64,000 nucleotides of DNA, from positions 79,484,422-79,548,421 of the forward strand of contig CM061140.1 in assembly GCA_030789695.1 (NCBI GenBank), in the 5' to 3' direction. Made by a program: the position numbers and the translations under genes. This stretch comes from Scilla litardierei (lineage: Eukaryota > Streptophyta > Magnoliopsida > Asparagales > Asparagaceae). The notes beneath the pieces were generated by a model, which saw nothing but the letters and a program-made list of their open reading frames with translations, searched no databases and was not told the origin of the DNA. Within the stretch, counting starts at the first letter, position 1; each line of letters starts with the position of its first letter. This document shows, one piece after another, positions 22,480 to 64,000 of this stretch.

Positions 22480-23178
22480 GGCTGAGTTCTTTGGAACTTC
22501 TTGATGCTATTGAAAATCTTTAGAGTTTAATTAAACCACTCTCAAACTCTCTCATTTCCCTCTTAGAGCTCATTCTCTCCTTCATGCATTAAAGTCAAGC
22601 TCAAGGGAAATCATCCAAGTGCTTTCAAGCTAATCTTATCACTTGGTTATCATTTTCCATGCCTTGCATTCATCTATGAGTAAGCATCTCAAGGCAAAGG
22701 TAAGAGTATTTATTTTACTTTGTGTTTCTTTGAAACCCTAATTCTCTTTGTGGGAATTAGATACTCTCTGTGTGGGAGTACTCTCTTTGTGGTAGTTTGG
22801 TGTCCTAGTGTAGGGCTAACCCTATTCTTTGTGTGGAAGTTAGTAATTCTCTGTGTGGGAGTTAGACCGTTGTGTAGGGTTGGTTTGGTTCTTGTGTAGG
22901 ACAAAATCTTCTGTGTGAGGTATCTCTTTGTGGGATTTGTATTCACTTCTCTTTGTGGGAAATATAGTGAATATTGGTGTGGCTGGACGTACCCAAGTTT
23001 GGGGAACCAGGGCAATATCTTGTGTTTGCGTTTGGATTAATTGTGTTGTTTAATTTTTCTTGCATTTATTATTCCGCACTTGCAAGTTAAATTTTAATTG
23101 CACAATTTATTGCCATTACTTTATTCACCCCCCTCTAGAGTGTTTGTTGTTAGTATTGCAAGTTAGACGGTCCTTACA
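22475..23178 (+). repeat. Solo copia LTR, right part (R-U5)
   Basis: Continues the LTR that starts at 5587 after the TA tract. It begins GAGAGGGCTGAGTTC, has CTTTGTGGGAATTAG-type repeats (22745-22960), and ends with TATTCACCCCCCTCTAGAGT, then GGTCCTTACA. The ACCCCCCTCTAG block is common at the 3' ends of plant copia LTRs. The satellite resumes immediately after. Confidence 0.65.
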
Positions 23179-25150
23179 AATCCTACCGTGTCGTCAACCG
23201 TAAGACGAAGGGGCCACCCCTCGCAACTAACAGACCCTAACGTGTCTTCAACCGTACGACGAAGGGGCCACCCACTTGCAATTAAACGACCCTATTGTGT
23301 CATCAGTGGTAAGACGTTGGGGCCACCCCCTCGCAACTAAACGACCCTATCGTGTCGTCAGCCGTAAGACGAATGGGCCACACCCTCGCAACTGAACGAC
23401 CCTATCATATCATTCAGCCGTAAGACGAAGGGGTACCCCTTGCAACTGAATGACCCAATTGTGTCGTCAGCTGTAAGATGATGGGGATGTCCCCTCGCAC
23501 CTAAACGACCCTACCATCTCATCAGCTGTAAGATGAAGGGGCTGCCCCCTCGAAACTGAACGACCCTATCGTGTCGTCGGCCGTAAGACGAAGGGGCCGC
23601 CCCCTTGCAACTGAACGACCCTATGGTTTTGTTCTGCCGTAAGACGAAGGGGCCACACCCTCCAACTGACGACCCTATTGTGTCGTCAACTGTAAGATGA
23701 TGGGGACACCCCCTCGAAACTGAACGACTCTATCGTATCATTCAGCCGTAAGACGATGTGACCGCCCCCTCACAACTAAATGACCCACTCATATCATTCA
23801 GCCATAAGACGACGGGGCCGCCCCCTCGCAACCGAATGACCATACCATGTCTTCAGCATTAAGACGAAGGGGCCTCCCCCTTGTAACTGAATGACCCGAC
23901 CGTGTCGTTCAGCCGTAAGGCGAAGGGGCCACCCCCTTGCAATTGAACGATCCTACCGTGTCGTCGGCTGTAAGACAATGTGGCTATTCCCTCGCAACTA
24001 AACGACCCTACCCTATCGTCAGCCATAAGACGAAGGGGCCACCCCTCGCAACTGAACGACCCTACCGTGTCGTCACCCATAAGACGAAGGGGCCACCACT
24101 CGCAACTAAACGACCCTACCGTGTGGTCAGCCATAATACGAAGGGGCCACCCCTTGCAATTAAACGACCCTATAATGTCGTCAGCTGTAAGATGATGGGG
24201 CCACCCACTCGCTACTGAACGACCCTATCATGTCGTCAGCTGTAAGACGAAGGGGCCACCCCCTAGCAAATCAATGACCCTATTGTGTCGTCAGCTGTAA
24301 GACGATGGGGCCGCCCCCTCGCAATTGAATGAACCTACCGTGTTGTCAGCCGTAAGACGAATGGACCACCTCTTGCAACTGAACGACCCCGTCGTGTCGT
24401 CAGCCGTAAGAGAAAGGGGTCACCACCTCGCAACTGAACAACCCTATGGTGTCGTCAGCTGTAATACGATGGGACCACCCCCTCGCAACTAAACGACCCT
24501 ATCGTGTCATCAACCATAAGACGAAGGGGCCACCCCCTCGCAACTAAATGACAATATCGTGTTGTCAGCCATAAGAGAAGGGGCCACCCCCTCCCAACTG
24601 AACGACTCTACCGTATCGTTCAGCCGTAAGACGAAGGGGCCACCACTCGCAACTGAACGACCCTATTGTGTCATCAGCGGTAAGACGATGGGGTCGCCCC
24701 CTCGCAACTGAACGACCCTACTGTGTCGTCAGCCGTAAGAATAAGGAGTCACCCGTCGCAACCGAACGACCTATCATGTCGTCAGCCATAAGACGAAGGG
24801 GCCACCCCCTCGCAACTGAACGACACTATTGTGTCGTCAACTGTAAGACGATGGGGCCACCCCCTTGCAACTGAACGACCCTATCGTATCATTCAGTCGT
24901 GAGACCGCCCCTTCACAACGAAACGATCCTCTCATATCGTTCAGTTGTAAGACAATGGGACCGCCCTAGCAACCGAACGACCCTATCGTATCATCAGCCG
25001 TAAGATGATGGGGCCACATGCTTGCAACCGAATGACCATGTCGTATCGTCAACCGTAAGACGAAGGGGCTACCACCCTCGCAACTGAACGACCCTGTCAT
25101 GTTGTCAGCCGTAAGGCGATCGAATTACCCCCTTCGTAACTGAACGAGGT
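23179..25150 (+). repeat. Satellite array, right part (~36 units of 55 bp)
   Basis: Direct tandem units of ~54-56 bp with consensus blocks CAACTGAACGACCCTATCGT, GTCGTCAGCCGTAAGACGA and GGGGCCACCCCCTCG. Units differ by scattered substitutions and some have CATTCAG for GTCAG. Open frames repeat the same peptide and are not genes. In Tat elements tandem repeats before the 3' LTR are a known source of satellites. Confidence 0.95.
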
Positions 25151-52060: not shown

Positions 52061-54292
52061 ATGTCTTCCTCGACGTCTTCGTTTCGTGGTCAGGGGTCGA
52101 GGGCGGTTGGGGAAGGGAGCTCCGCCGTGGAAACTGGGGAGGTGCCCCTCGATATTGCGGGCGTGAAGTCGGTGCTGAAGAGGTCCATCGCGGAGATCTT
52201 CGAGTTGTATGTCAGGCCACCGTATTCTGTTTGCAAACCGGACGTGCAAGAGAGGGTATGTTTCGCGGGTGACCGTGAGGTAGGAGTGTATGTGTCCTCC
52301 TTCGAGCAAGGGTTGCGCTTTCCCCCCATCCGTTCGTGTTAGATGTGTTGAATTTCGTGGGGCTTCCCTTGTATCGTCTGATGCCCAATGCCATTAGTGT
52401 GGTTATGGGTTTCCTTGTGCTGTGCGTGAGCAACCAGGTTCACCCCTCGCTGTCTTTGTTTCGCTATTTCTTCACGGTGAAGAAGCTGGGGTCCTGCTAT
52501 TATCTCTCCGTGAAGAGGAGCCATCGGCTCATTAGGGGGTTGCCTGGGAAGATTAAGGGGTGGCGCAAGCAGTATGTGTTTGTCAGTGTGCCGGAGGATG
52601 TGCTGATGAGATCTGATTGGGCGGAGCTGAATCCCGAGGCGAAGGAGGGGGTTGAATTGGGGGACGAGGAGAAACAGGTGGCACAGTTTCTAATGGCGAT
52701 ACCGGGGGAGGGCCGAGATTACCAGACGCTCGCCCGGGCTGAGATGATAGCGTTGAACATCTGGCCCGAAGGTACAATAGATTTTGGTATTAGTGCATCT
52801 GAATTGCTTACCCGGAATGTTCTTTCTTTGGCAGGTCGCACAATGAGTTGGTCCCTTAAGGAGATGATGAAATGAGCTGCGGAGCAGGTGGGGCGAACGT
52901 CGAAGAGGACGGTCCCCAAGAGGTTGCGAGAGGAAGGCGTGGTGGGGAGTTCGACGAGGGGGCAGGCGTCCACGAAGAGGAGGAAGCTGCCTGCGAGCTC
53001 GTCTGTCCCTGATGCTCTGGGGCGGGGGAAAATCGGTCAGCAGGGGGGCGGGTTCGGGGAGGGGATCGCAACCCCTGTCATCGACTTGGAGGGCGGGGAC
53101 GAAGGGTCGACTGGGGGAGGGGTGGAGGCCCTCGAGACATGGTCATCTAGTCCCCGGGTACCCGTCGATGTGGAGGGGGTAGCCGTTACCGATCAGCAGG
53201 GGAAGGCCGAGACATCGGGCGGCCCGGCCAAGTCAGCCGGCTGGGACAGTTGGCCCTACGGCTGTCCGTTGTTCGGTCTGGAGAGGGCCGCCGAACCCAG
53301 CTGTGAGGCCTTGCTTGTCCGTTTAAAGGCTAAGAGGACCGAGGTCGAGGGTTATCCTGACGAAGCTCTTCATCGGGCGCCGTTAAGGTGAGGGATGATG
53401 AGTCCGTGTTCGAGGATGGTGGCGTGGCGGCGAGGCTGGCGGAGAATATTTTCTTGCCCCGCGATAGGGTGGCGCCGGAGGCGGTGGAGCCTGAGGGTCT
53501 ATGCGGAACCGCGCTGTGGCACGGCGTCCAGGTAGGTTATGTAAGCCGGGTGATGTTTGCTAGTGGATTTTATTGAACACCCTAAATCGGTTATCTTTTA
53601 TTATGCAGGCCATTAATTTGATGCTTGGAGCGATGAGGCACGTGCCAGCCATACATAAGGCCGAGGGTGCCATAGCTAGAGTGGCGGCCGAGTTCGCCGC
53701 CTTTCGTAAGAGTGCTGGGGAGGGAATGGCGAAGGAGAGGGAGCGGTGCAGCCAGTATGAGGCGGAGGTAGAGCGCCTGAAGGCGGTCCTGGCCGATCAT
53801 GAGGTACATGCGACCGTGGCTAGAGATATGTCGAAGGAGCTGGAGGAGGCCCTTGGGAGGGAGGAAGCGCGTGCGGTGGATCTGGCGGGTCGTGCGAAGG
53901 CCGCCGAGGAGGAGTTGGCTCGGAAGGTCGAGGAATTTCGCTCGTACCAGGACACGACCGTCATCCCCGCCCTCGCAGATGCGATGTCCCGGGGCATGGA
54001 GACAGGCCGGGCGGATGGGTGGGAGGCCTGCTTGGTCCGGATAAAGGAGAGGGTGGCGGGCCTGTCCCCGCCAATTGAGCTCGACCTCGACGGACTCGCA
54101 GCTTGCGGCGACGAGGAGGAGGGGGACGACGAGCGGGTGATCGGCGAGGGAGGCGGGGACGTCGAGGCGGGGACCGGCAGGGGGGGGGGGGGGGGGGGGG
54201 GATTCCCCCGAAGGGGATGGGAAGGATGTCGTGACTGGCGGATGCGCCGTCAGTGCGGGGAATGTAACAGAGTAGTTTTGTATAGGTGTTAA
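52061..54292 (+). pseudogene. Tat-type extra gene, copy 2 (Transposase_28-like plus coiled coil)
   Basis: Starts MSSSTSSFRGQGSRAVGEGS. The domain has REVGVYVSSFEQGLRFP, then LDVLNFVGLPLYRLMPNAIS and VVMGFLVLCVSNQVHPSLSL. A C-run at ~52321-52326 differs in length from the relatives and shifts the frame. Introns 52772-52834 (GAAG|GTACAA ... TTGGCAG) and 53532-53608 (CCAG|GTAGGT ... TTATGCAG) match copy 1. The second exon has a TGA at ~52873, a basic KRTVPKRL and TKRRKL (possible nuclear signals) and a shift near 53388. The last exon is a coiled coil (AEVERLKAVLADHEVHATVA region), ending in an acidic and Gly-rich tail at a 21-G run (~54181-54201). Confidence 0.55.
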
Positions 54293-55555: not shown

Positions 55556-56633
55556 CTTATAGTCAGGTGGGCATCGGGCCGTCGCCTACCACGCATATAG
55601 CGCTCTGGTTTAGGTGGCGAAGCTCCGTAAGCTTGCCCCGGACATCTTCGTTGGTGGGGGGGGAGCGAGTGCGTAGCTCGGCCCGTGCCCTTCTCCGGTT
55701 TGGGTGGCGAGGATTGGTCCTGCCCCGGAGTCTTTGAGAGGGCGGGTGTTGGGCCGTCGTCTCCCCGCAGCCTCTATAGTCGGACGGGTATTGGGCCGTC
55801 GCCTACCCCACATATGGCGCTCCAGTTTGGGTGGAAAAGCTCCATAAGCTTGCCCCGGAGGTCTTCGTTGGTGGGGGGAGCGAGTGCGTAGCTCGGCCCG
55901 TGCCCTTCTCCGGTTTGGGTGGCGAGGATTGGTCCTGCCCCGGAGTCTTTGAGAGGGCGGGTGTTGGGCCGTCGCCTCCCCGCAGCCTCTATAGTCGGAC
56001 GGGTATTGGGCCGTCGCCTACCCCGCATATGGAGCTCCGGTTTGGGTGGCAAAGTTCCGTAAGCTTGCCCCGGAGGTCTTCGTTGGTGGGGGGAGCGAGC
56101 GCGTAGCTCGGCCCGTGCCCCTCTCCGGTTTGGGTGGCGAGGATTGGTCCTGCCCCGGAGTCTTTGAGAGGGCGGGTATTGGGCCGTCACCTCCCCGCAG
56201 CCTCTATAGTCGGACGGGTATTGGGCCGTCGCCTACCCCGCATATGGTGCTCCGGTTTGGGTGGCAAAGCTCCGTAAACTTGACCCGGAGGTGGGGGGAG
56301 CGAGCGCGTAGCTCGGACCGTGCCCCTCTCCGGTTTGGGTGGCGAGGATTGGTCCTGCCCCGAAGTCTTTGAGAGGGCGGGTATTGGGCCGTCGCCTCCC
56401 CGCAGCCTCTATAGTCGGACGGGTATTGGGCCGTCGCCTACCCCGCATATGGCGCTCCGGTTTGGGTGGCAAAGCTCTGTAAGCTTGCCCCGGAGGACTT
56501 CGTTGGTGGGGGAAGCGAGCACGTAGCTCGGCCCGTGCCCCTCTCTGGTTTGGGTGGCGAGGATTGGTCCTGCCCTGCAGTCTTTGAGAGGTATTGGCCC
56601 GTCGCCTCCCTGCAGCCTCTATAGTCGGACGGG
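55556..56633. repeat. 215-bp tandem array (~5 units)
   Basis: Units contain TAGCTCGGCCCGTGCCC, CGGTTTGGGTGGCGAGGATT, GGGTATTGGGCCGTCGCCTA and GCTCCGGTTTGGGTGGCAAA. Anchors at 55671, 55886, 56101, 56306 and 56521 give a 215-bp period with one 205-bp unit. CGGTTTGGGTGGC occurs twice per unit, suggesting an older half-unit. Open frames repeat the unit and are not genes. The array is cut by the LTR at 56634. Confidence 0.9.
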
Positions 56634-56993
56634 TGATCGCTCCGGGACGTAACCCAAAAGAACGGTTGTAGTTTTACCGCAAGTGCACGGTGTAGCAGCG
56701 AGCGTGTTATCGAACACAGGGAGGACGAATGACCGTGCTTGTTCCGATCAACCTTGCTATTTAAGAAGAGAGAAATTTGCCTTTGGCGATCCTGTCACAA
56801 TCGTCAGACAAAGTACGGAAATATCAAATCAAATAAAGAACGTCTAGGGAATGAGGAATTCCCGCTACTCACCGTATTTCGCAAAAGTGGTTCATCGGTA
56901 TCAAAGTTGCTAGAATAAGATTTTGGATGAACTAGTTGCAACTGAATGTAGAACCAAGCTCACGCTCTCGCGCTGTTGCCGGTCTATAGCTAT

Positions 56994-57294
56994 CCTAGGC
57001 TCGGGTCCAATCTCTTGCAAACCCTAGCCTAGGGAAGCTAGCATTAGGATCAACATCATCGTTCAATCGCGCACCGAGCCCAATCTCTTGCAAACTCGGC
57101 CCACGACCTAGATTGGGATAGTTCCTACCCGTCCAATCTCTTGCAAACGGGTATTGGCGCGGAATTGGAACCGGAAACCCTAGTATCGGTCCAATCTCTT
57201 GCAAACCGACACTACGGAAATTCGATTCCAACCCAATTCGGATTTCTAGGGTTTCCTATCGAATTGGGATCCAATCTCTTGCAAATCCCAATCG
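56994..57294 (-). repeat. Five hairpins with a constant 14-nt loop and different stems
   Basis: The loop CCAATCTCTTGCAA (+ strand) is at 57007, 57080, 57133, 57191 and 57271. Its flanks pair in every copy: CCTAGGCTCGGGT/ACCCTAGCCTAGG (12 of 13), CCGAG/CTCGG, TACCCGT/ACGGGTA, TAGTATCGGT/ACCGACACTA (9 of 10), ATTGGGAT/ATCCCAAT. The stems are unrelated to one another. The array lies in the transcribed part of the LTR. Confidence 0.85.
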
Positions 57295-57683
57295 ATGTGA
57301 ATTCCTAGCCATCCGTAGTAAATTGATCCCAATCTAATCTCTAATAGCAATTCTAACGAAATTTCTAACAATTCTTCACAATTGTGAAATAGGGCTTGTA
57401 GGGTTCATCCTCACGCCCCAAGACGTGGCGACTACTCACAATTCATAGCAAGATCACAAAAATAATCAATGAAATAAGCAATAGAATTCATCACAATATT
57501 GAGATATGCAATAAAAATAGAATTTTTAGAGAAGAGAAAAGCAAACCAATGGAGTTCTTCAATTATTCCAACAAAAATCCAATTTTGTCTCCTCTTCTAT
57601 CACAAGAATAAAACTAAAAAGCTAATCTAAAAAGCTGCAAAAAATCTAAGAGAGAGGCTCTAAAACTAGGGTAAAAACAGGGG

Positions 57684-57691
57684 TTAAATAG
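57684..57691 (-). promoter_or_regulatory. LTR TATA-like box of the Athila-like element
   Basis: Minus-strand CTATTTAA in GGGGGCTATTTAACCCC. Palindromic CACTCGGCCGAGTG motifs begin ~85 nt upstream. Confidence 0.4.
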
Positions 57692-57775
57692 CCCCCAAAA
57701 TCGTCCAAAAACTGTGACCAAAATACCCCTGCACAGCCTGTTTTTCGCAATTTTCGCTACAGGCAGCGCGTCGCA

Positions 57776-58160
57776 CTCGGCCGAGTGACAAAAGTCGCTC
57801 GGCCGAGTGAAAACCCTGTAAATTTCCAGTAAGTCTCGATCTTCAGGGGTCTTCACTTCGGGGGCGGCTCGGCCGAGTGAGGTGTCGTCACTCGGTCGAT
57901 GGCTTCATGGCACTCGGGCAGTCGGGATTATCCACTCGGCCGAGTGGGTCTTCTGAAGCTCAGGCAGCCGAAAAACAGTAACATGGCGATTTTTGAAGGG
58001 CTTCGTCTGGGCGCCACTCGGGCGGACGGGGTATCGTCACTCGGCCGATGTGGTCTCCGTCGCTCGGCCGAGTGCACATATGAATCGTGTCTGATCTGGT
58101 CGGCCGAGCGGTGTCTCGCTGGTCGGCTGAGTGACTCCTTCACTCGGCCGAGTGGGACAC
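57776..58160. promoter_or_regulatory. CACTCGGCCGAGTG palindrome cluster, LTR U3
   Basis: Exact or near copies at ~57776, 57798, 57870, 57935, 58039, 58060, 58095 and 58141, several perfect over 14 bp. They lie between the LTR start and the TATA-like box on the minus strand. Confidence 0.7.
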
Positions 58161-58449
58161 AAAACATGCCCAAACTGCTTATTTTGGCCTCCTCGTCGCT
58201 CCTGCGACGTCCGTTCTTCTTCCGCTCCTCTCCAACAGCAAAATACCACTCGGGGAGGTCGTCGGTGACCCTCCGGAGTAAGCGCATCTCGAGATCACTC
58301 CAAATCGCGCCAAATCACCTGAAATGCGACAAAAACAACAAATCGTGAAAAGCATCGCAATATCGTCGATATATCGTGAAAAACATGATTTGGGCGATCT
58401 AAATGGCATGCAAACATGCGGGAAAAAGGTGTAAAATAAGGAGTGATCA

Positions 58450-58464
58450 AAATCCCCCAAGCTT
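58450..58464 (-). other. Polypurine tract of the Athila-like element
   Basis: Minus-strand AAGCTTGGGGGATTT immediately before the LTR start TGATCACTCC. AGCTTGGGGGA-type copies recur at 59046-59057, 60059-60069 and 63859-63869. Confidence 0.7.
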
Positions 58465-60411
58465 GCCACTTACTCGTCCTCGAGGAAGATAAGTGAAAGG
58501 CGAACCCGGTGGATTCGGAAAACGAAAACGGCGAAAAATGAAGAAAAATGAAGAACGGAGAAAAATGAAGAACGAAATAAAAATAAAGAAGAAAGAAAGA
58601 AGCGAAGAGGTAAGCTGCTAGATCATTTTCTCAGGACGTGGGTTCCGCTTACTCGTATAGCATGCACTGGATGAAAAACACATGTCAAAGAGTTTTACTC
58701 TGATATCATAGTATAATAGTGCAAATAGAAATAGAAAACCCACGAACAACAATATAATCATGAAAAACAGAATAATTTTATAATTAACATCGTCTGAATC
58801 ATTTAAAGCGGTATACAAATCACAGATCACACACTTTTCAATTGAATGCTTTCTATCAGGAGTATAAGAGTATCACACTATAGAATAGAGAGAATAGAAA
58901 AGTATGGATTTCATGAAATGAGTGCTAGGCTTAGATTTTTGGATTTCGTAAAGCTAAAAATAATCTCACCGAGTATAGAATATTACTTAGCCTAGGTTGT
59001 CGTGCAACGTCAAGTAGTCACTCTCTCACACATCAATGGATCCACTCCCCCAAGCTTATCTATAAGCATGGTGGCATAAAAAAAATATTTACATCCCCAT
59101 TTCTATAAAGCTCCAAAAGCAATGAAAAGAGAAGAGAAAGAAAGAAAGTGAGATGGGATCTTTTATTGAGGATTTTTCCTCTTTTCTTTTTCTTTTTCTC
59201 CTTTTTTTCTTTTGAAGCAATAGCATATATATACACAACGATCCCAACTCAAAGAGAGATAATGATATACAAGAATATTTTCTCTTTTTTTTTCTTTTTT
59301 TTGAATAAGAAATTTGGAGCTAGGAATTAATAGCGGGGGAAAATGCCATATAATAGAATCGCTAAGGGGAGATTCACCAATGATTTTAAAAGTAGAGAAA
59401 TGATGTTCAAGATTTGTGGAGAAAGAAATGAATATATTTCTCGGTTCACTCTATAAGACATGCACGACAACTTCAGCAGGGTAATCTAATCTACTCAGTT
59501 TCGATCACAAAAAAAAGCTAACTAATCCAAATTTATCATAGCTAACATCATCCAATCATCCTGAAGTGAAATGTACAATTCATGCATATAGAAGTGATAT
59601 AGCAAAAGAAATCGGTACTCCAGATATAGGCATTCAATGCGTGAATCTTGGTGTGTTTTCTGTGATAGCATACATATGAATATTCAGACTCAGCTAATAA
59701 TAAAATTTCATCCATTTTCATGTGGAAAAAGTGTGGGTACTATCTCTAGATGCAAGGCAAGTCATAGCATATGATATCAGAAATAAAATCTAAGACATGA
59801 CAAATATAGCATGCATATAGAATAAGCTAACTCCACGTCATCATCATCACAGAAAAGTCATCTCTAGCATGAGATGAAAAAGAAAGAAATAAAGATAAAG
59901 GGAAAATAGAACTATGCAATGCGGCACACAGAAAAATAAGAAAAACGTGATGCATGGCAAAATAAAAGAAAAATGATGAAAAATAAGTGCAAAAGCGAAA
60001 AACGGTGTGAAAAACTAAAAATAAAGGTGGCAAATCGAAAAAGAACGTGAGAACTCACTCCCCCAAGCTAAATGGCACAGTGTCCTCAATGTGCAAAGTG
60101 GGGCACACCGAGAGACAAGTAATGTGAGGGGCAAGTGAGGATGCATGCATGATGAAAAAAGATGAAAAAAGAAAGAAAAATAAAGAAATGAAAAATATGA
60201 TGCGGACATGATGCATGCACAGATAGGAGTGATACAGATATATAAGTGTGTCACCAAAAACTCTCCCTTTCTCCCAAAAAAGATATATAAGGATACGATC
60301 TGAATGAGAAACCCAAAATAAGTGAGGGGAGGGGGGGTGGACAAAACTGCAACAGGACCCAGCAGAAACGGGCAGCACAACGGCAGGAATAAACGATGGC
60401 ATCAAGGGTGC
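58465..60411 (-). other. 3' untranslated region of the Athila-like element
   Basis: A- and AG-rich on the + strand, with many GAAAAATGAAG or AAAGAAAGA runs. No open frame of note. Contains two extra copies of the polypurine-tract motif. Confidence 0.6.
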
Positions 60412-62506
60412 CTAAGAAGGTGGTGATGCGCCGTCTCCGTCCTGAGGCGGAAGTGGTGGTGGTGGCTGGACAGGCCGCTGAGCGGGTGTGGGTGTGGAAG
60501 TGGTAGCAGGCTGAGTGTGTGTGGAAGTGTGGGTGGGAACCTGCTGGGTGGGTGGGGGTACGCGGGGGAGACACTCCAGGACCTGGGTAAGACAGTAGTG
60601 AATCTGGGGGATCAGGTCAAAGCGGCCAGCCATCGCAGAGACGGTGGAGGACAGGGTCCTAAGGTTGCCTCTGAGGCCACTCACCGCCCCCTCTAGAGCA
60701 CGAATGCTCTGAAGTACAGTGTCGGGGGGAGGTGGTGCAGAGGGACGCACCGGTCGGGGCTGTGCAGGGCGGGGCTGGCGTACTCGGGTCGCGTATGTGA
60801 CGGGCTCAGCGGGGAAGGGAACGAAAGGTGCTGCACTCGTAAATGTGGGCCTGGCCTCAGTGTGAGGCCGGGGCACCGGCTGGTGAGAAGTGGAGGCAGC
60901 AGCAGCGAAAGAAGAATACAAAAGAGGCAGCGAGGCGGCCGGAGAGGTCAGTGGCACAGAAGTGTGGACAGACGCCACGACACTCTCGGAAAATACAGCA
61001 GCAGTAGAGACAGAGGGCTCTCCGCACTCAACTACGGTCGGCGGGCGCTCAGGGGGTGCAGAAGAAACAGGCTCAGCAGACAGAGGGCCGGTGGGGGTGG
61101 TGACAGCCGCGGGAGTGGTGGAGGTGGGCTCAGCTAAGGTACTCCCGACACCGACAGAGGTGGGGACAGAGGTGTCAGGAGCAGCGAAAACATCAGGGAT
61201 AGGCTGAGGGGCCACAGGGTCAACAGGGGCGGCAGGCTCGGCAGGGGCGACAGGGTCTGCAGGGGCAGCGTGGGCCTGCTCGGCCTCCTCGGCCTCGAGC
61301 ACGTAAGCAGCGGGGATGAGAACATCCATCGCAGGGAGCCAGTCAACGTGGGCTGGTGCAATCTGAGTCCAAGCTGGGCTCGGAAGAATCATGTAATCGG
61401 CACCGTAAGGGCCGTGCAACCAGACCCAGTGACGCTCACCGTGCGGACGAAGCATCTTCATCCGGGCCATAACATCGATCGACAAAGAAGTGGGGCCCGG
61501 TACTCGTCGCAGGTCGTCAGGGAAGTCCTCGCCGGTCATAAGGGCAAGCAAGGTGATCAGGCCGCAGCAGCATATCGGTGAGCGAGCGCCCACCGATACA
61601 ATGATGCGGTCCAAAAACCAAGCCGCGACATCGATCACGACGGCGGGGACAAGCTCATCGCCATCCCTAGATAGAGATCTGGGACGTGTCATCGCGTAGA
61701 GCATGTAGAGCTCCGGCGTAGACATCGTGCCCGGCTCATATCTGGCCAAAAAGGTCGTCGCCATAAGGCGCTGAGCAATACGGAGGCAGGGGTGGACAAT
61801 GGCCGAGGCCTTGGCCCTACTAGGGTCAAAGGCAGCGTGAAGACCCGTGATCTGGGCCCAGAAGGCACCGGCGTCGAAGGAAGGTGGGGGGATATGGGTG
61901 GGGCCGTAACCGCGATCGGCTCCGGGGACAGCGGGCCACGAGAAAAATGCTCTCATCATATCGAGAGTGACCTGGCACTCCCGGTCCATGAACCGAAACG
62001 AGCATCCCTCGTCGGTCCGGGCGATCGAACTCAGAATCTCAAGTGTCGGGCGGGTAAACGTGTCCGCCGACACCTGAAAGAAATATCGCCAGCCCACGTT
62101 GTCGTACAACGTGAGCATCCCCTCTAGTACCCCCAGGCGTCCTAGGTCGGCAAGGTGTGCAAACCTGGAGGGTACGATCGAGCGCTGGGAGATACGCTCG
62201 AAGACGACGCGGTGTGCGTCGTCTCGGAATGTAATCCCGAGCGGCCCGACCAGTGGAGCCGGAGGTGGTGGCTGTGGAGCAGCGGGGAGTGGCTGAGCGG
62301 GCTGTGCGGGCTGTGTGGGCGCTGCAGGCTGTGTGGGCGCTGCAGGCTGTGCGGGGTGTGCGGGGCCTGCAGGCTGTGCTGGGTGGATGGGGGTGTGTGG
62401 GGGAAGGCGGAGGAGAGTCCTCCAACTCGTGGGAGGGGCCGGCATCATCCGACCGCTTCCGCTTGGCGGAAGCTCTCTTCGACCGCGGTCGTGTCCGGGG
62501 CGGCAT
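60412..62506 (-). pseudogene. ATHILA-type ORF (env-position protein), one N-terminal frameshift
   Basis: The long frame (60412-62448, 678 codons) contains the ATHILA ORF-1 family pattern: ISQRSIVPSRFAHLADLG, LYDNVGWRYFF, FTRPTLEILSSI, FRFMDRECQVTLDMMRAFF, FWAQITGLHAAF, VHPCLRIAQRLMATTF, STPELYMLYAM and VIDVAAWFLDRIIVSVGA. The C-terminal half is Pro/Ala/Val-rich with a final helix (LRGNLRTLSSTVSAMAG). The natural start is probably the ATG at 62506, giving MPPRTRPRSKRASAKRKRSD, a basic nuclear-signal-like stretch. That frame leaves the long frame by a one-base shift in a repetitive Pro-rich segment (~62290-62450). No transmembrane segment is evident, so an envelope role is not supported. Confidence 0.7.
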
Positions 62507-63054
62507 ATCGGCCCCGAGCGCGCGCCGAAAAGTGTAAAAAGTGCGACGTGTGCAAAAGAATGGAAGGAGTATACCCAGACACGCCGCGAGTGCTAAGCAA
62601 TGGAAGCGTGCGAAGAGAGCGCCTCCGCGAAGCCCAAATCAGTCCGTAGAAGCTCCCTGGGGCTCCCCTAAGCTCCCAAAAACAACCTGCGCATGAAATG
62701 GAGATATCAGCGAGTAATATTCAAAACGTATGGAGCATTAGGGGTATAATAGATAGATATAGAAATTGATTAGGGTTTGGGGGTCGTTTAATACATGGAT
62801 CCTCGAAAAACACACAAAAAGAGGAGAAATAGGGCGAATCAGGCGATACCGGAGGTGGTCGGAGCGGCGGCGGCCGGCGGCGACTCGGGCGAGGCGCGGC
62901 GGTTGCTCGGCCGGCGGTGGCTGGCCGAGCGATGGCGCGGCGATGGTCGATCGGGCGAGTGAGGGCACGAGCGAGCGAGGGTCGGGCGAGGGAGCTGAGG
63001 GGTCGGGCGAATTTGGGATTTTGCGTTTCGAAAAACGTGCCCCCCCTCGGCCCC
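62507..63054 (-). other. Putative 5' leader of the ATHILA ORF
   Basis: Lies between the internal TATA box and the ORF start on the minus strand. An acceptor-like TCATGCGCAG (~62687) suggests an intron in the leader, but a donor was not fixed. No coding sequence. Confidence 0.35.
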
Positions 63055-63062
63055 TTATATAA
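63055..63062 (-). promoter_or_regulatory. Internal TATA box upstream of the ATHILA ORF
   Basis: Minus-strand TTATATAA in TTTCATTATATAAGGGGCC, ~550 nt upstream of the ORF start, directly preceded by CACTCGGCCGAGTC. Confidence 0.5.
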
Positions 63063-63069
63063 TGAAAGT

Positions 63070-63400
63070 TACGACTCGGCCGAGTGACTAGGTCACTCGG
63101 CCGAGTGAGATCAATGGTGATATCCTCCCCGCTTACGCTTCGGCCGAGTGGCTTTGCCAGCCTCAGCCGAGTGGAGTAAGTCCATTCGGTCGAGTGGCTC
63201 AAGCTACTCGGCAAGACTCGCCCTAGGAGCGTATCTGTTTTACTCGGCCGAGTGAAAATATATACTCGGCCGAGTAGCAGTTATACTGAAATCAAGAAAA
63301 TATACAGAGAGTTGGGTACATCAGACTTCCCTCGTTCGTGAGCGGCTCGGCCGGACGAACTTGTGTACTCGGCCGAGTGACTAGTATACTCGGCCGAGTG
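63070..63400. promoter_or_regulatory. CACTCGGCCGAGTG palindrome cluster, internal promoter
   Basis: About ten exact or near copies, e.g. 63075, 63093, 63138, 63241, 63263, 63366 and 63388. Same motif as in the LTR U3, here just upstream of the internal TATA box. Confidence 0.7.
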
Positions 63401-64000
63401 AGCCTTGTGTTCTGCTGTTTGTCTTCGTTTGGGCTCTAAACTCCGTCTTTCTTCCTCCAGTCGATTTCATCTTACTCCTAAGCATCGAGCGTCTTCTTGG
63501 GGCGCTCCTCGTCGTCTCGTTCATCCTCCTCATGATGGATTTACCTATCTCCTCTCCTGTCAAGAAAAATAGGACCCGTTATCACAAAATTTTTGGGCAA
63601 ACGACTCAAAACACTAAAAATTTCTAAAACAAAAATAAAGAAAAAGTAAAAATAAAGCAATAACCGTCGGGTTGCCTCCCGACAAGCGCTCGTTTAAGGT
63701 CGTGAGCTCGACCCCCTATGATTTTCAATTAATGCGGGATGTTCGGTGCATATGAGATGCACCCATCAAACTTTCCGGGGAGAACGCTTGGATTCGGAAG
63801 TTGCGGCGGCGTGTTCTCCCGCGGTGGTCTCTCGTCTCGAATAGTGTTGGGGGGAGGCTCCCCCAAGCTAGCGTTTGCTCCGGTCAACGGCTTCACCGGT
63901 GACGCCGATTTTCGTAGCGGCGGAGCTTTCTTCGGAGACTTTTGTTTCGAGAGCTTGCAGAGCTCTTGAATCCTTGCGACATCAGCGTCGCCTTCATCAT
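63401..64000 (-). other. Athila-like region at the right edge
   Basis: No supported gene. + strand 63669-63690 reads GGGTTGCCTCCCGACAAGCG and on, a wording common in plant gypsy elements of this branch. A fourth polypurine-type copy is at 63859-63869. The rest may be spacer between pol and the internal promoter. Confidence 0.4.

What the first reader, a model, noticed from the sequence alone, without database searches (positions are those of the whole stretch)
56994..57294. Five hairpins sharing one 14-nt loop but with unrelated, self-complementary stems
Seen: CCAATCTCTTGCAA occurs five times in 280 bp, and in each copy the bases on its two sides pair (5 to 13 bp), although stem sequences differ completely between copies. 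Independent stems that each remain complementary are strong evidence that the folded shape, with a fixed loop, is what was kept or produced. The array lies ~390-690 nt downstream of the LTR TATA-like box on the element strand, so it would be in the RNA leader (loop TTGCAAGAGATTGG in sense). Inference: a multi-copy loop for Gag binding, dimerisation, translation, or a DNA-level process that inserts the 14-mer into palindromes.
Basis: partly seen in the sequence, partly recalled or inferred. Interest (0 to 1): 0.9.

Follow-up and report, generated by a model that had tools for sequence, protein, structure and literature searches.

The report
Repeated RNA hairpins in plant retrotransposon
A very abundant jumping gene of a plant carries, in what should be the untranslated front part of its RNA, a row of hairpins whose stems all differ but whose tips share one small folded cap that selection has kept almost unchanged, so they are probably docking sites for a protein the element needs to copy itself.

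Summary
Five exact 14-mers lie in the 3' LTR (56634-58449, minus strand) of an Athila-type element, about 400-680 nt downstream of a TATA-like box, in the inferred RNA leader. Each has pairing flanks that differ between copies. The host genome holds 167,774 exact 14-mers against 5 of a reversed control. The "loop" is not open: it is a cap with a 5' two-nt bulge, a 3-bp helix (CAA/UUG or CAC/GUG) and a GAGA (GNRA) tetraloop. Across 63 arrays helix pair 6-11 covaries (A-U 274, C-G 37, U-G 2, unpaired 2 of 315). The 12 other cap positions changed once on internal tree branches and 34 times on terminal ones, against 131/86 in spacers (p = 2.6e-11). Stems show a few compensatory changes. Two loci of diverged families carry GAGA-capped hairpins with other stems; in L231 at nearly the same distances from U5. 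Best reading: a multi-copy protein-binding site in leader RNA, most likely for Gag/packaging. The RNA structure is well supported by comparison; the partner is not shown. Kissing-loop dimerisation and a DNA-level origin are disfavoured.

The parts
57258..57297 (-). Hairpin 1 (most 5' in the RNA); cap 57271-57284; stem 8 bp, ATTGGGAT/ATCCCAAT on the sense strand
57178..57217 (-). Hairpin 2; cap 57191-57204; stem of about 10 pairs including one G-U
57120..57159 (-). Hairpin 3; cap 57133-57146; 7-bp stem; stem positions 4 and 5 are C-G in some copies and T-A in others
57067..57106 (-). Hairpin 4; cap 57080-57093; in 27 of 63 arrays its cap has C6-G11 instead of A6-U11 (23 of 27 in the first sample, 4 of 36 in the second)
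56994..57033 (-). Hairpin 5; cap 57007-57020; stem of about 12 pairs with one mismatch; C6-G11 in 10 of 63 arrays
56949..56986 (-). Sixth hairpin with a GAGA tetraloop but a different cap helix (GCGC-GAGA-GCGU)
   Evidence: a GAGA-containing core is found in 59 of 63 arrays
56634..58449 (-). 3' LTR (about 1.8 kb) holding the array; termini TGATCACTCC...GGAGCGATCA; inserted in a tandem repeat of about 215 bp
   Evidence: the 5' LTR in L175 is 99.26% identical over the 1757 nt held
57684..57690 (-). TATA-like box (TATTTAA); a transcription start about 30 nt downstream is inferred
   Evidence: the same motif 949-1001 nt before the U5 motif in L190, L193, L197 and L198
56676..56691 (-). U5 motif (ACCGTGCACTTGCGGT in sense) used as a cap-independent anchor
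58450..58464 (-). Polypurine-tract-like AAGCTTGGGGGATTT next to the 3' LTR
   Evidence: sequence
60412..62448 (-). Athila ORF-1-like open reading frame (env position), 678 aa, PF03078

Best explanation
The array is a set of five (with the neighbour, six) protein-binding hairpins in the RNA leader of an Athila-type LTR retrotransposon. In each of the five, a stem of free sequence presents a fixed cap: U-G wobble, 5' bulge UG, helix C4-G13/A5-U12/N6-N'11, and a GAGA (GNRA) tetraloop. Shown by comparison: the five stems, some compensatory changes in them, covariation of cap pair 6-11, and near-absolute conservation of the other 12 cap positions on internal but not terminal branches. Also shown: GAGA-capped hairpins in the leaders of two diverged relatives. 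Inferred: that the array is transcribed; that the cap is read in RNA by a protein; and that the most likely reader is the element's own Gag (nucleocapsid region), each hairpin adding a binding site so that full-length RNA is selected for packaging into particles.
For: Pairing of flanks far above controls. 167,774 exact 14-mers in the genome against 5 for the reversed control. 63 distinct arrays align in one register. Cap-invariant columns: 1 internal and 34 terminal changes; spacer 131 and 86, flank 173 and 170 (p = 2.6e-11 and 3.8e-9). In 33 distinct arrays from loci found through the U5 motif and not through the cap, cap-invariant minor states are 11 of 1980 cells, spacer 269 of 4221. Cap pair 6-11: 313 of 315 standard, with a double C-G to A-U change in hairpin 4 and another in hairpin 5. 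Stem positions 1-7: 3 double compensations on internal branches against a permutation mean of 0.20, 0 of 500 as high; slid registers have 0 or 1. Closed cap -6.7 against open loop -3.4 kcal/mol on a model hairpin. PBS-like TGGCGCCGTTGCCGGGGA 6 nt after the LTR in several relatives and, with one difference, after the 5' LTR of this element. Diverged L231: GAGA hairpins at 290, 404, 479 against 294, 405, 478 in the window, with no blastn similarity of the leaders; position agreement p = 0.0003. Diverged L204: two GAGA hairpins by the strict scan, three folded as tetraloops. Purine-rich or tetraloop sites near the dimerisation site bind Gag in several retroviruses (passages of PMC10726167 and PMC5874298).
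Against: No binding partner, transcript or structure probing. The Gag of this element was not examined. Predicted probability of the cap helix pairs on the model hairpin is only about 0.6. 53 of 90 LTR loci found by the U5 motif lack such an array, so related LTRs do without it. Stem columns are weakly constrained in rate (stem1-7 against flank p = 0.31, against spacer 0.0062), and on internal branches core pairs also show 14 breaks and 13 mends beside 15 single and 3 double pair-keeping changes; single pair-keeping changes are as many (20) in the register slid by -1. Positions in L204 alone do not agree better than chance (p 0.11-0.12). G-U over A-C changes (10:6 internal, 25:16 terminal) and fold z-scores (-6.1 sense, -6.0 antisense) do not tell which strand is read. 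PMC10726167 itself reports that purine-rich regions near the dimerisation site are not needed in FIV (passages).
Confidence: 0.5

Rival explanations
1. Same RNA hairpins, but the reader is a host protein or the ribosome: a signal for nuclear export, RNA stability, translation of gag through a long AUG-rich leader, or escape from silencing.
For: The LTR part of the leader is about 1 kb with eight ATGs, which would need help for translation. All structural and selection evidence fits equally.
Against: Nothing specific for it. The two diverged loci keep GAGA but vary bulge and helix, which fits co-evolution with an element-encoded partner at least as well.
Confidence: 0.35
2. Kissing-loop dimerisation: the palindrome UUGCAA in the apical loops starts pairing of two genomic RNAs, as CUGCAG is proposed to do in yeast Ty3.
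For: UUGCAA is self-complementary; computed duplex energies are -4.5 (UUGCAA) and -6.3 (UUUGCAAG). Ty3 and retroviruses use short palindromes in hairpin loops (passages of PMC11381356 and PMC5874298).
Against: The palindrome is broken in natural caps UUGCAC, 37 of 315 caps, and absent from L204 and L231. The conserved part includes GAGA and UGG, which such pairing does not need. The cap is predicted closed.
Confidence: 0.08
3. A DNA-level feature: double-stranded or cruciform DNA binding, or a process that places a 14-mer inside palindromes.
For: Inverted repeats are also symmetrical in DNA, and the fold z-score is about the same for both strands.
Against: Cap pair 6-11 and some stem pairs change by compensation. 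Five hairpins at fixed spacing are shared by all 63 arrays aligned. The cap is a GNRA tetraloop only in the sense RNA.
Confidence: 0.04
4. Neutral left-over of local duplication of one hairpin, with no function.
For: Repeats are common in LTRs (recalled).
Against: Cap-invariant positions show 1 internal change where about 60 would be expected from the spacer rate, while terminal changes (34 in 60 columns) are near spacer level (86 in 128). Arms share 1-6 of 12 bases between copies yet stay paired.
Confidence: 0.02

Closest known systems
Retroviral packaging and Gag-binding hairpins: MuLV SL-C/SL-D with GACG tetraloops, MMTV SL4 with unpaired purines
   Same: Short hairpins with a specific apical sequence in the 5' RNA leader, more than one copy in MuLV (passages)
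   Different: Here five to six copies of a cap on unrelated stems; bulge plus GAGA; plant element; partner unknown
Yeast Ty3 genomic RNA dimerisation site (PAL6, CUGCAG)
   Same: Ty3/gypsy-type element; hairpin in the 5' part of the RNA (passages of PMC11381356)
   Different: One palindromic loop, in the gag part; here the palindrome is not conserved
Sirevirus palindromic repeated motifs (RM boxes)
   Same: Repeated palindromic motifs in plant LTRs (section 9 of PMC2829016)
   Different: RM boxes lie upstream of the TATA box with a conserved palindrome and are proposed DNA elements. The window has such boxes too (CTCGGCCGAG), separate from this array
RNA phage operator hairpins (MS2, PP7; recalled)
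   Same: Bulged 5' nucleotide a few base pairs below a fixed apical loop read by a coat protein
   Different: Different loop; only an analogy of shape, no homology tested

Membership tests
Athila lineage of Ty3/gypsy LTR retrotransposons | Athila ORF-1 domain (PF03078); found in 16% of Athila elements per PMC6317226 (passage) | tested here: met
   39.7 bits against cut-off 20.2 in ORF 60412-62448
Athila lineage of Ty3/gypsy LTR retrotransposons | PBS a few nt after the 5' LTR, complementary to tRNA-Asp as in Calypso/Diaspora (passage of PMC1142308) | tested here: inconclusive
   TGGCGCCG(T/C)TGCCGGGGA 6 nt after the LTR; match to tRNA-Asp recalled, not aligned
Athila lineage of Ty3/gypsy LTR retrotransposons | Position in reverse transcriptase/integrase phylogeny, no archaeal RNase H | not tested
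   gag-pol lies mostly outside the window and was not analysed
Retroviral-type packaging signal | Structured hairpins in the genomic RNA leader | tested here: met
   (prediction, layout and covariation; no transcript data)
Retroviral-type packaging signal | Binds Gag and is needed for RNA packaging | not testable with these tools
   needs binding and packaging assays
Kissing-loop dimerisation site | Conserved self-complementary loop sequence | tested here: not met
   UUGCAA becomes UUGCAC in 37 of 315 caps and is absent in L204 and L231
Known Rfam RNA family | Match to a covariance model | tested here: not met
   no hit at gathering score in the window, none up to E = 1 in 56600-58500
Sirevirus RM boxes | Conserved palindrome, mostly with CGG-CCG core, upstream of the TATA box | tested here: not met
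   array lies downstream of the TATA-like box, stems unrelated, fixed part is apical

The most novel reading that the evidence does not exclude
A previously undescribed class of RNA recognition array in plant retroelements: bulge-plus-GAGA-tetraloop caps on freely evolving stems, kept across families whose leaders no longer align, and co-evolving with an element-encoded RNA-binding protein as a modular, multivalent packaging code.
Probability: 0.35. Interest if true: 0.85.

Novelty: new variant of a known kind. Interest (0 to 1): 0.72.

Why it matters
My searches (in a library of open-licence papers only) found no RNA packaging or leader signal of this kind described for plant Ty3/gypsy elements, although these make up large parts of plant genomes. 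A hairpin family with an exact cap, a measured selection signature and probably tens of thousands of natural copies (167,774 exact 14-mers, up to five per LTR) turns the question of how such elements choose their RNA into an ordinary binding experiment with short RNAs. It is also a clean natural example of a fixed recognition cap on drifting stems, useful for calibrating covariation methods.

Tried and rejected
Relatives outside this genome: none found in what is held. None of these collections is of plant genomes, so nothing here tests other plant species.

Other near-matches of the 14-mer in the window at 23268-24857 lie in a satellite with unpaired flanks. Complement of the loop elsewhere in the element part held (56634-64000): nothing of 8 nt or more. 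Extra degenerate hairpins in the window by covariance model: the five score 44-51 bits, the next match 11.7 at E 0.93. A strand test from G-U against A-C looked suggestive with 8 internal changes (7:1) but not with more data (10:6), so it is not used. GNRA hairpins in the leaders of the U5-sharing loci without arrays (L176-L205) were looked for: one isolated GAGA hairpin in L194, no others (its antisense control has 6 in 90,480 nt).

Rows dropped and limits: L158 and L159 (broken spacing) of 29 arrays; L177 and L190 as duplicates of L152 and L173. L177 and L201 hold window-type arrays that, by U5 type and distance, seem to belong to a neighbouring element; L201 is still among the 33. Of 100 listed U5 places 90 were read (30 as loci, 60); 10 were left out. 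Array detection allows at most 3 mismatches per cap, so strongly changed caps would be missed. All sampled places lie in the first 21 Mb of contig C1. The first position test (p 0.00047) counted a GAGA at 483 of L204 that the folding program does not close as a tetraloop; one search repeats it without (p 0.0008 for the strictly scanned hairpins of both loci, 0.0017 with 426; L231 alone 0.0003, L204 alone 0.11-0.12). Both tests were made after seeing the positions.

Full report
What is there. On the minus strand the right end of the window holds the 3' part of an element: an ORF of 678 aa with the Athila ORF-1 domain PF03078 (60412-62448), a polypurine-tract-like sequence, and an LTR at 56634-58449 with ends TGATCACTCC...GGAGCGATCA. 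It sits in a tandem repeat of about 215 bp. Its 5' LTR is in L175 and is 99.26% identical over the 1757 nt held (13 differences), so the insertion is recent (roughly 0.3 million years with a recalled plant rate of 1.3e-8 per site and year). After the 5' LTR comes AGTTTT and a PBS-like TGGCGCCGCTGCCGGGGA; a like site follows the LTR in several relatives. The TATA-like box is at 57684-57690, so the five repeats (57007-57284) lie about 400-680 nt further along the RNA, and the last of them about 320 nt before the U5 motif at 56676-56691. That they are in the leader RNA is inferred from this layout; no transcript data were available.

Five exact 14-mers, each flanked by arms that pair: 34 of 40 Watson-Crick and 37 of 40 with G-U in the first eight positions. 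Only the true assignment among 120 permutations reaches this, and 0 of 20,000 random sets of LTR sites do. Arms share 1-6 of 12 bases between copies, yet 12 of 13 pair positions show a change on both sides. Of 118 chance occurrences of the 14-mer in viral contigs none has 7 of 8 standard pairs. The 321-nt region folds at z = -6.1 in sense and -6.0 in antisense, so energy does not tell the strand; 100-nt windows are only partly unusual.

The loop is a cap. The folding model closes the 14-mer: U1-G14, bulge U2 G3, pairs C4-G13, A5-U12, A6-U11, tetraloop GAGA, at -6.7 against -3.4 kcal/mol for the open loop, with pair probabilities of only about 0.6. This was a prediction from one model hairpin. 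It was then tested on other copies. In the first sample of 27 arrays, 23 have C6 and G11 instead of A6 and U11 in hairpin 4 and seven in hairpin 5; in the other 36 of the 63 distinct arrays it is 4 and 3. Over all 63 the 6-11 pair is A-U 274, C-G 37, U-G 2, and not standard in 2 of 315. The tree places one double change in hairpin 4 and one in hairpin 5 (node support 0.58 to 1.0); further changes at these columns fall singly on branches (one keeping, two mending the pair).

Selection. I compared changes on internal branches (mostly the history of replicating elements) with terminal branches (mostly decay after insertion); this reading of branches is inferred. In 63 arrays the 60 cap-invariant columns have 1 internal and 34 terminal changes; spacer 131 and 86; flank 173 and 170; stem1-7 62 and 75 (Fisher p 2.6e-11 and 3.8e-9 for cap against spacer and flank; stem1-7 against spacer 0.0062, against flank 0.31). 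The first sample was found through the cap itself, which could bias this, so a second was taken through the U5 16-mer: 14,952 places in the genome, of which 90 of the 100 listed were read. Thirty-five of the 90 hold a full five-cap array of the window type, in two cases (L177, L201) apparently of a neighbouring element. In the 33 of these not already held, cap-invariant minor states are 11 of 1980 cells (0.56%), spacer 269 of 4221 (6.4%), stem1-7 131 of 2277 (5.8%). Stems therefore vary about as much as spacer, but to a good part in a paired way: 1925 of 2209 core cells pair in 65 arrays including two duplicates, and 3 double compensations at core positions are seen on internal branches against a permutation mean of 0.20, 0 of 500 as high. 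The same branches also show 15 single pair-keeping changes, 14 breaks and 13 mends, and the register slid by -1 has 20 single pair-keeping changes, so single changes do not help the case. An example of compensation is hairpin 3, ACCCGT/ACGGGT in some copies and ATTCGT/ACGAAT in others.

Diverged families. Two of the 90 U5 loci, L204 and L231, have leaders that blastn aligns to the window leader not at all (L231) or at best with E 0.015 (L204), yet carry GAGA-capped hairpins with other stems and cap helices (GTG-A-CCAC-GAGA-GTGG-CAC; CGTG-A-TTAC-GAGA-GTGA-CACG; GCCG-AC-TGC-GAGA-GCA-TGGT). In a common frame before U5 the window has 214, 294, 352, 405, 478 and a sixth at 523; L231 has 290, 404, 479, all three by the strict scan. 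L204 has 201 and 282 by the strict scan and 426 by folding; its GAGA at 393 and 483 are not closed as tetraloops by the folding program. The position agreement is p = 0.0003 for L231 and not significant for L204 alone (0.11-0.12), tested after the fact. GAGA hairpins of the strict kind occur once in 90,480 nt of antisense control, and singly in two other U5 loci (L194, L242). In the clearest hairpins the 5' side between outer stem and tetraloop is 5 nt (bulge 1 + 4 bp, or bulge 2 + 3 bp). Two loci are few; the search for more did not complete. The remaining 53 U5 loci have no such array. Of the 22 among them read with their U5 end, 19 have one other U5 type and many a PBS of the same kind; for the 31 short stretches the U5 end was not fetched. 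So the feature belongs to some families only.

Mechanism. Fixed tetraloop, fixed bulge, one exchangeable base pair and free stems are the marks of an RNA element read by a protein. Its inferred place in the leader before the PBS, and its conservation only while the element replicates, point to a step of the element's own cycle. Packaging by Gag is my first choice by analogy with retroviruses, where purine-rich apical loops serve Gag binding and GACG tetraloops dimer contacts (passages; the FIV paper itself reports that purine-rich regions near its dimerisation site are not needed). A host reader for export, stability or translation is the main rival; the LTR part of the leader holds eight ATGs. 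Kissing through UUGCAA, as proposed for CUGCAG in Ty3, is unlikely because the palindrome is lost in natural caps and in the diverged loci.

Literature. Searches for the 14-mer, its RNA form and the CGGCCG palindrome found no paper; searches joining Athila or retrotransposon with hairpin, palindrome, tetraloop, leader, packaging or covariation listed nothing whose title or abstract describes this (listings). Papers of which I saw passages: PMC11963269, PMC2829016 (and its section 9), PMC6911290, PMC11381356, PMC10726167, PMC5874298, PMC6317226, PMC1142308.

Noticed in passing
57776-58152 and 63075-63398: Palindrome CTCGGCCGAG occurs six times in U3 upstream of the TATA-like box and six times upstream of the env-position ORF, next to a TATATA at 63056-63061 on the same strand. 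This is the layout described for Sirevirus (Ty1/copia) RM boxes, here in an Athila-type element, and suggests an own promoter for the downstream ORF.
   Followed up: partly
55558-56634: About five copies of a 205-217-bp tandem repeat, ending at the element's LTR.
   Followed up: no
52279-52875 (+): ORF with the Transposase_28 domain PF04195, the antisense-ORF domain reported for Retand elements.
   Followed up: no
23100-25100: Dense tandem repeat of roughly 55 bp.
   Followed up: no
L176-L205: A second LTR family shares the U5 motif ACCGTGCACTTGCGGT and, where a PBS follows, a TGGCGCCGTTGCCGGGGA-like one, but has a leader without the hairpins.
   Followed up: partly
L158, L159: Arrays of the same family with altered hairpin number or spacing.
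   Followed up: no
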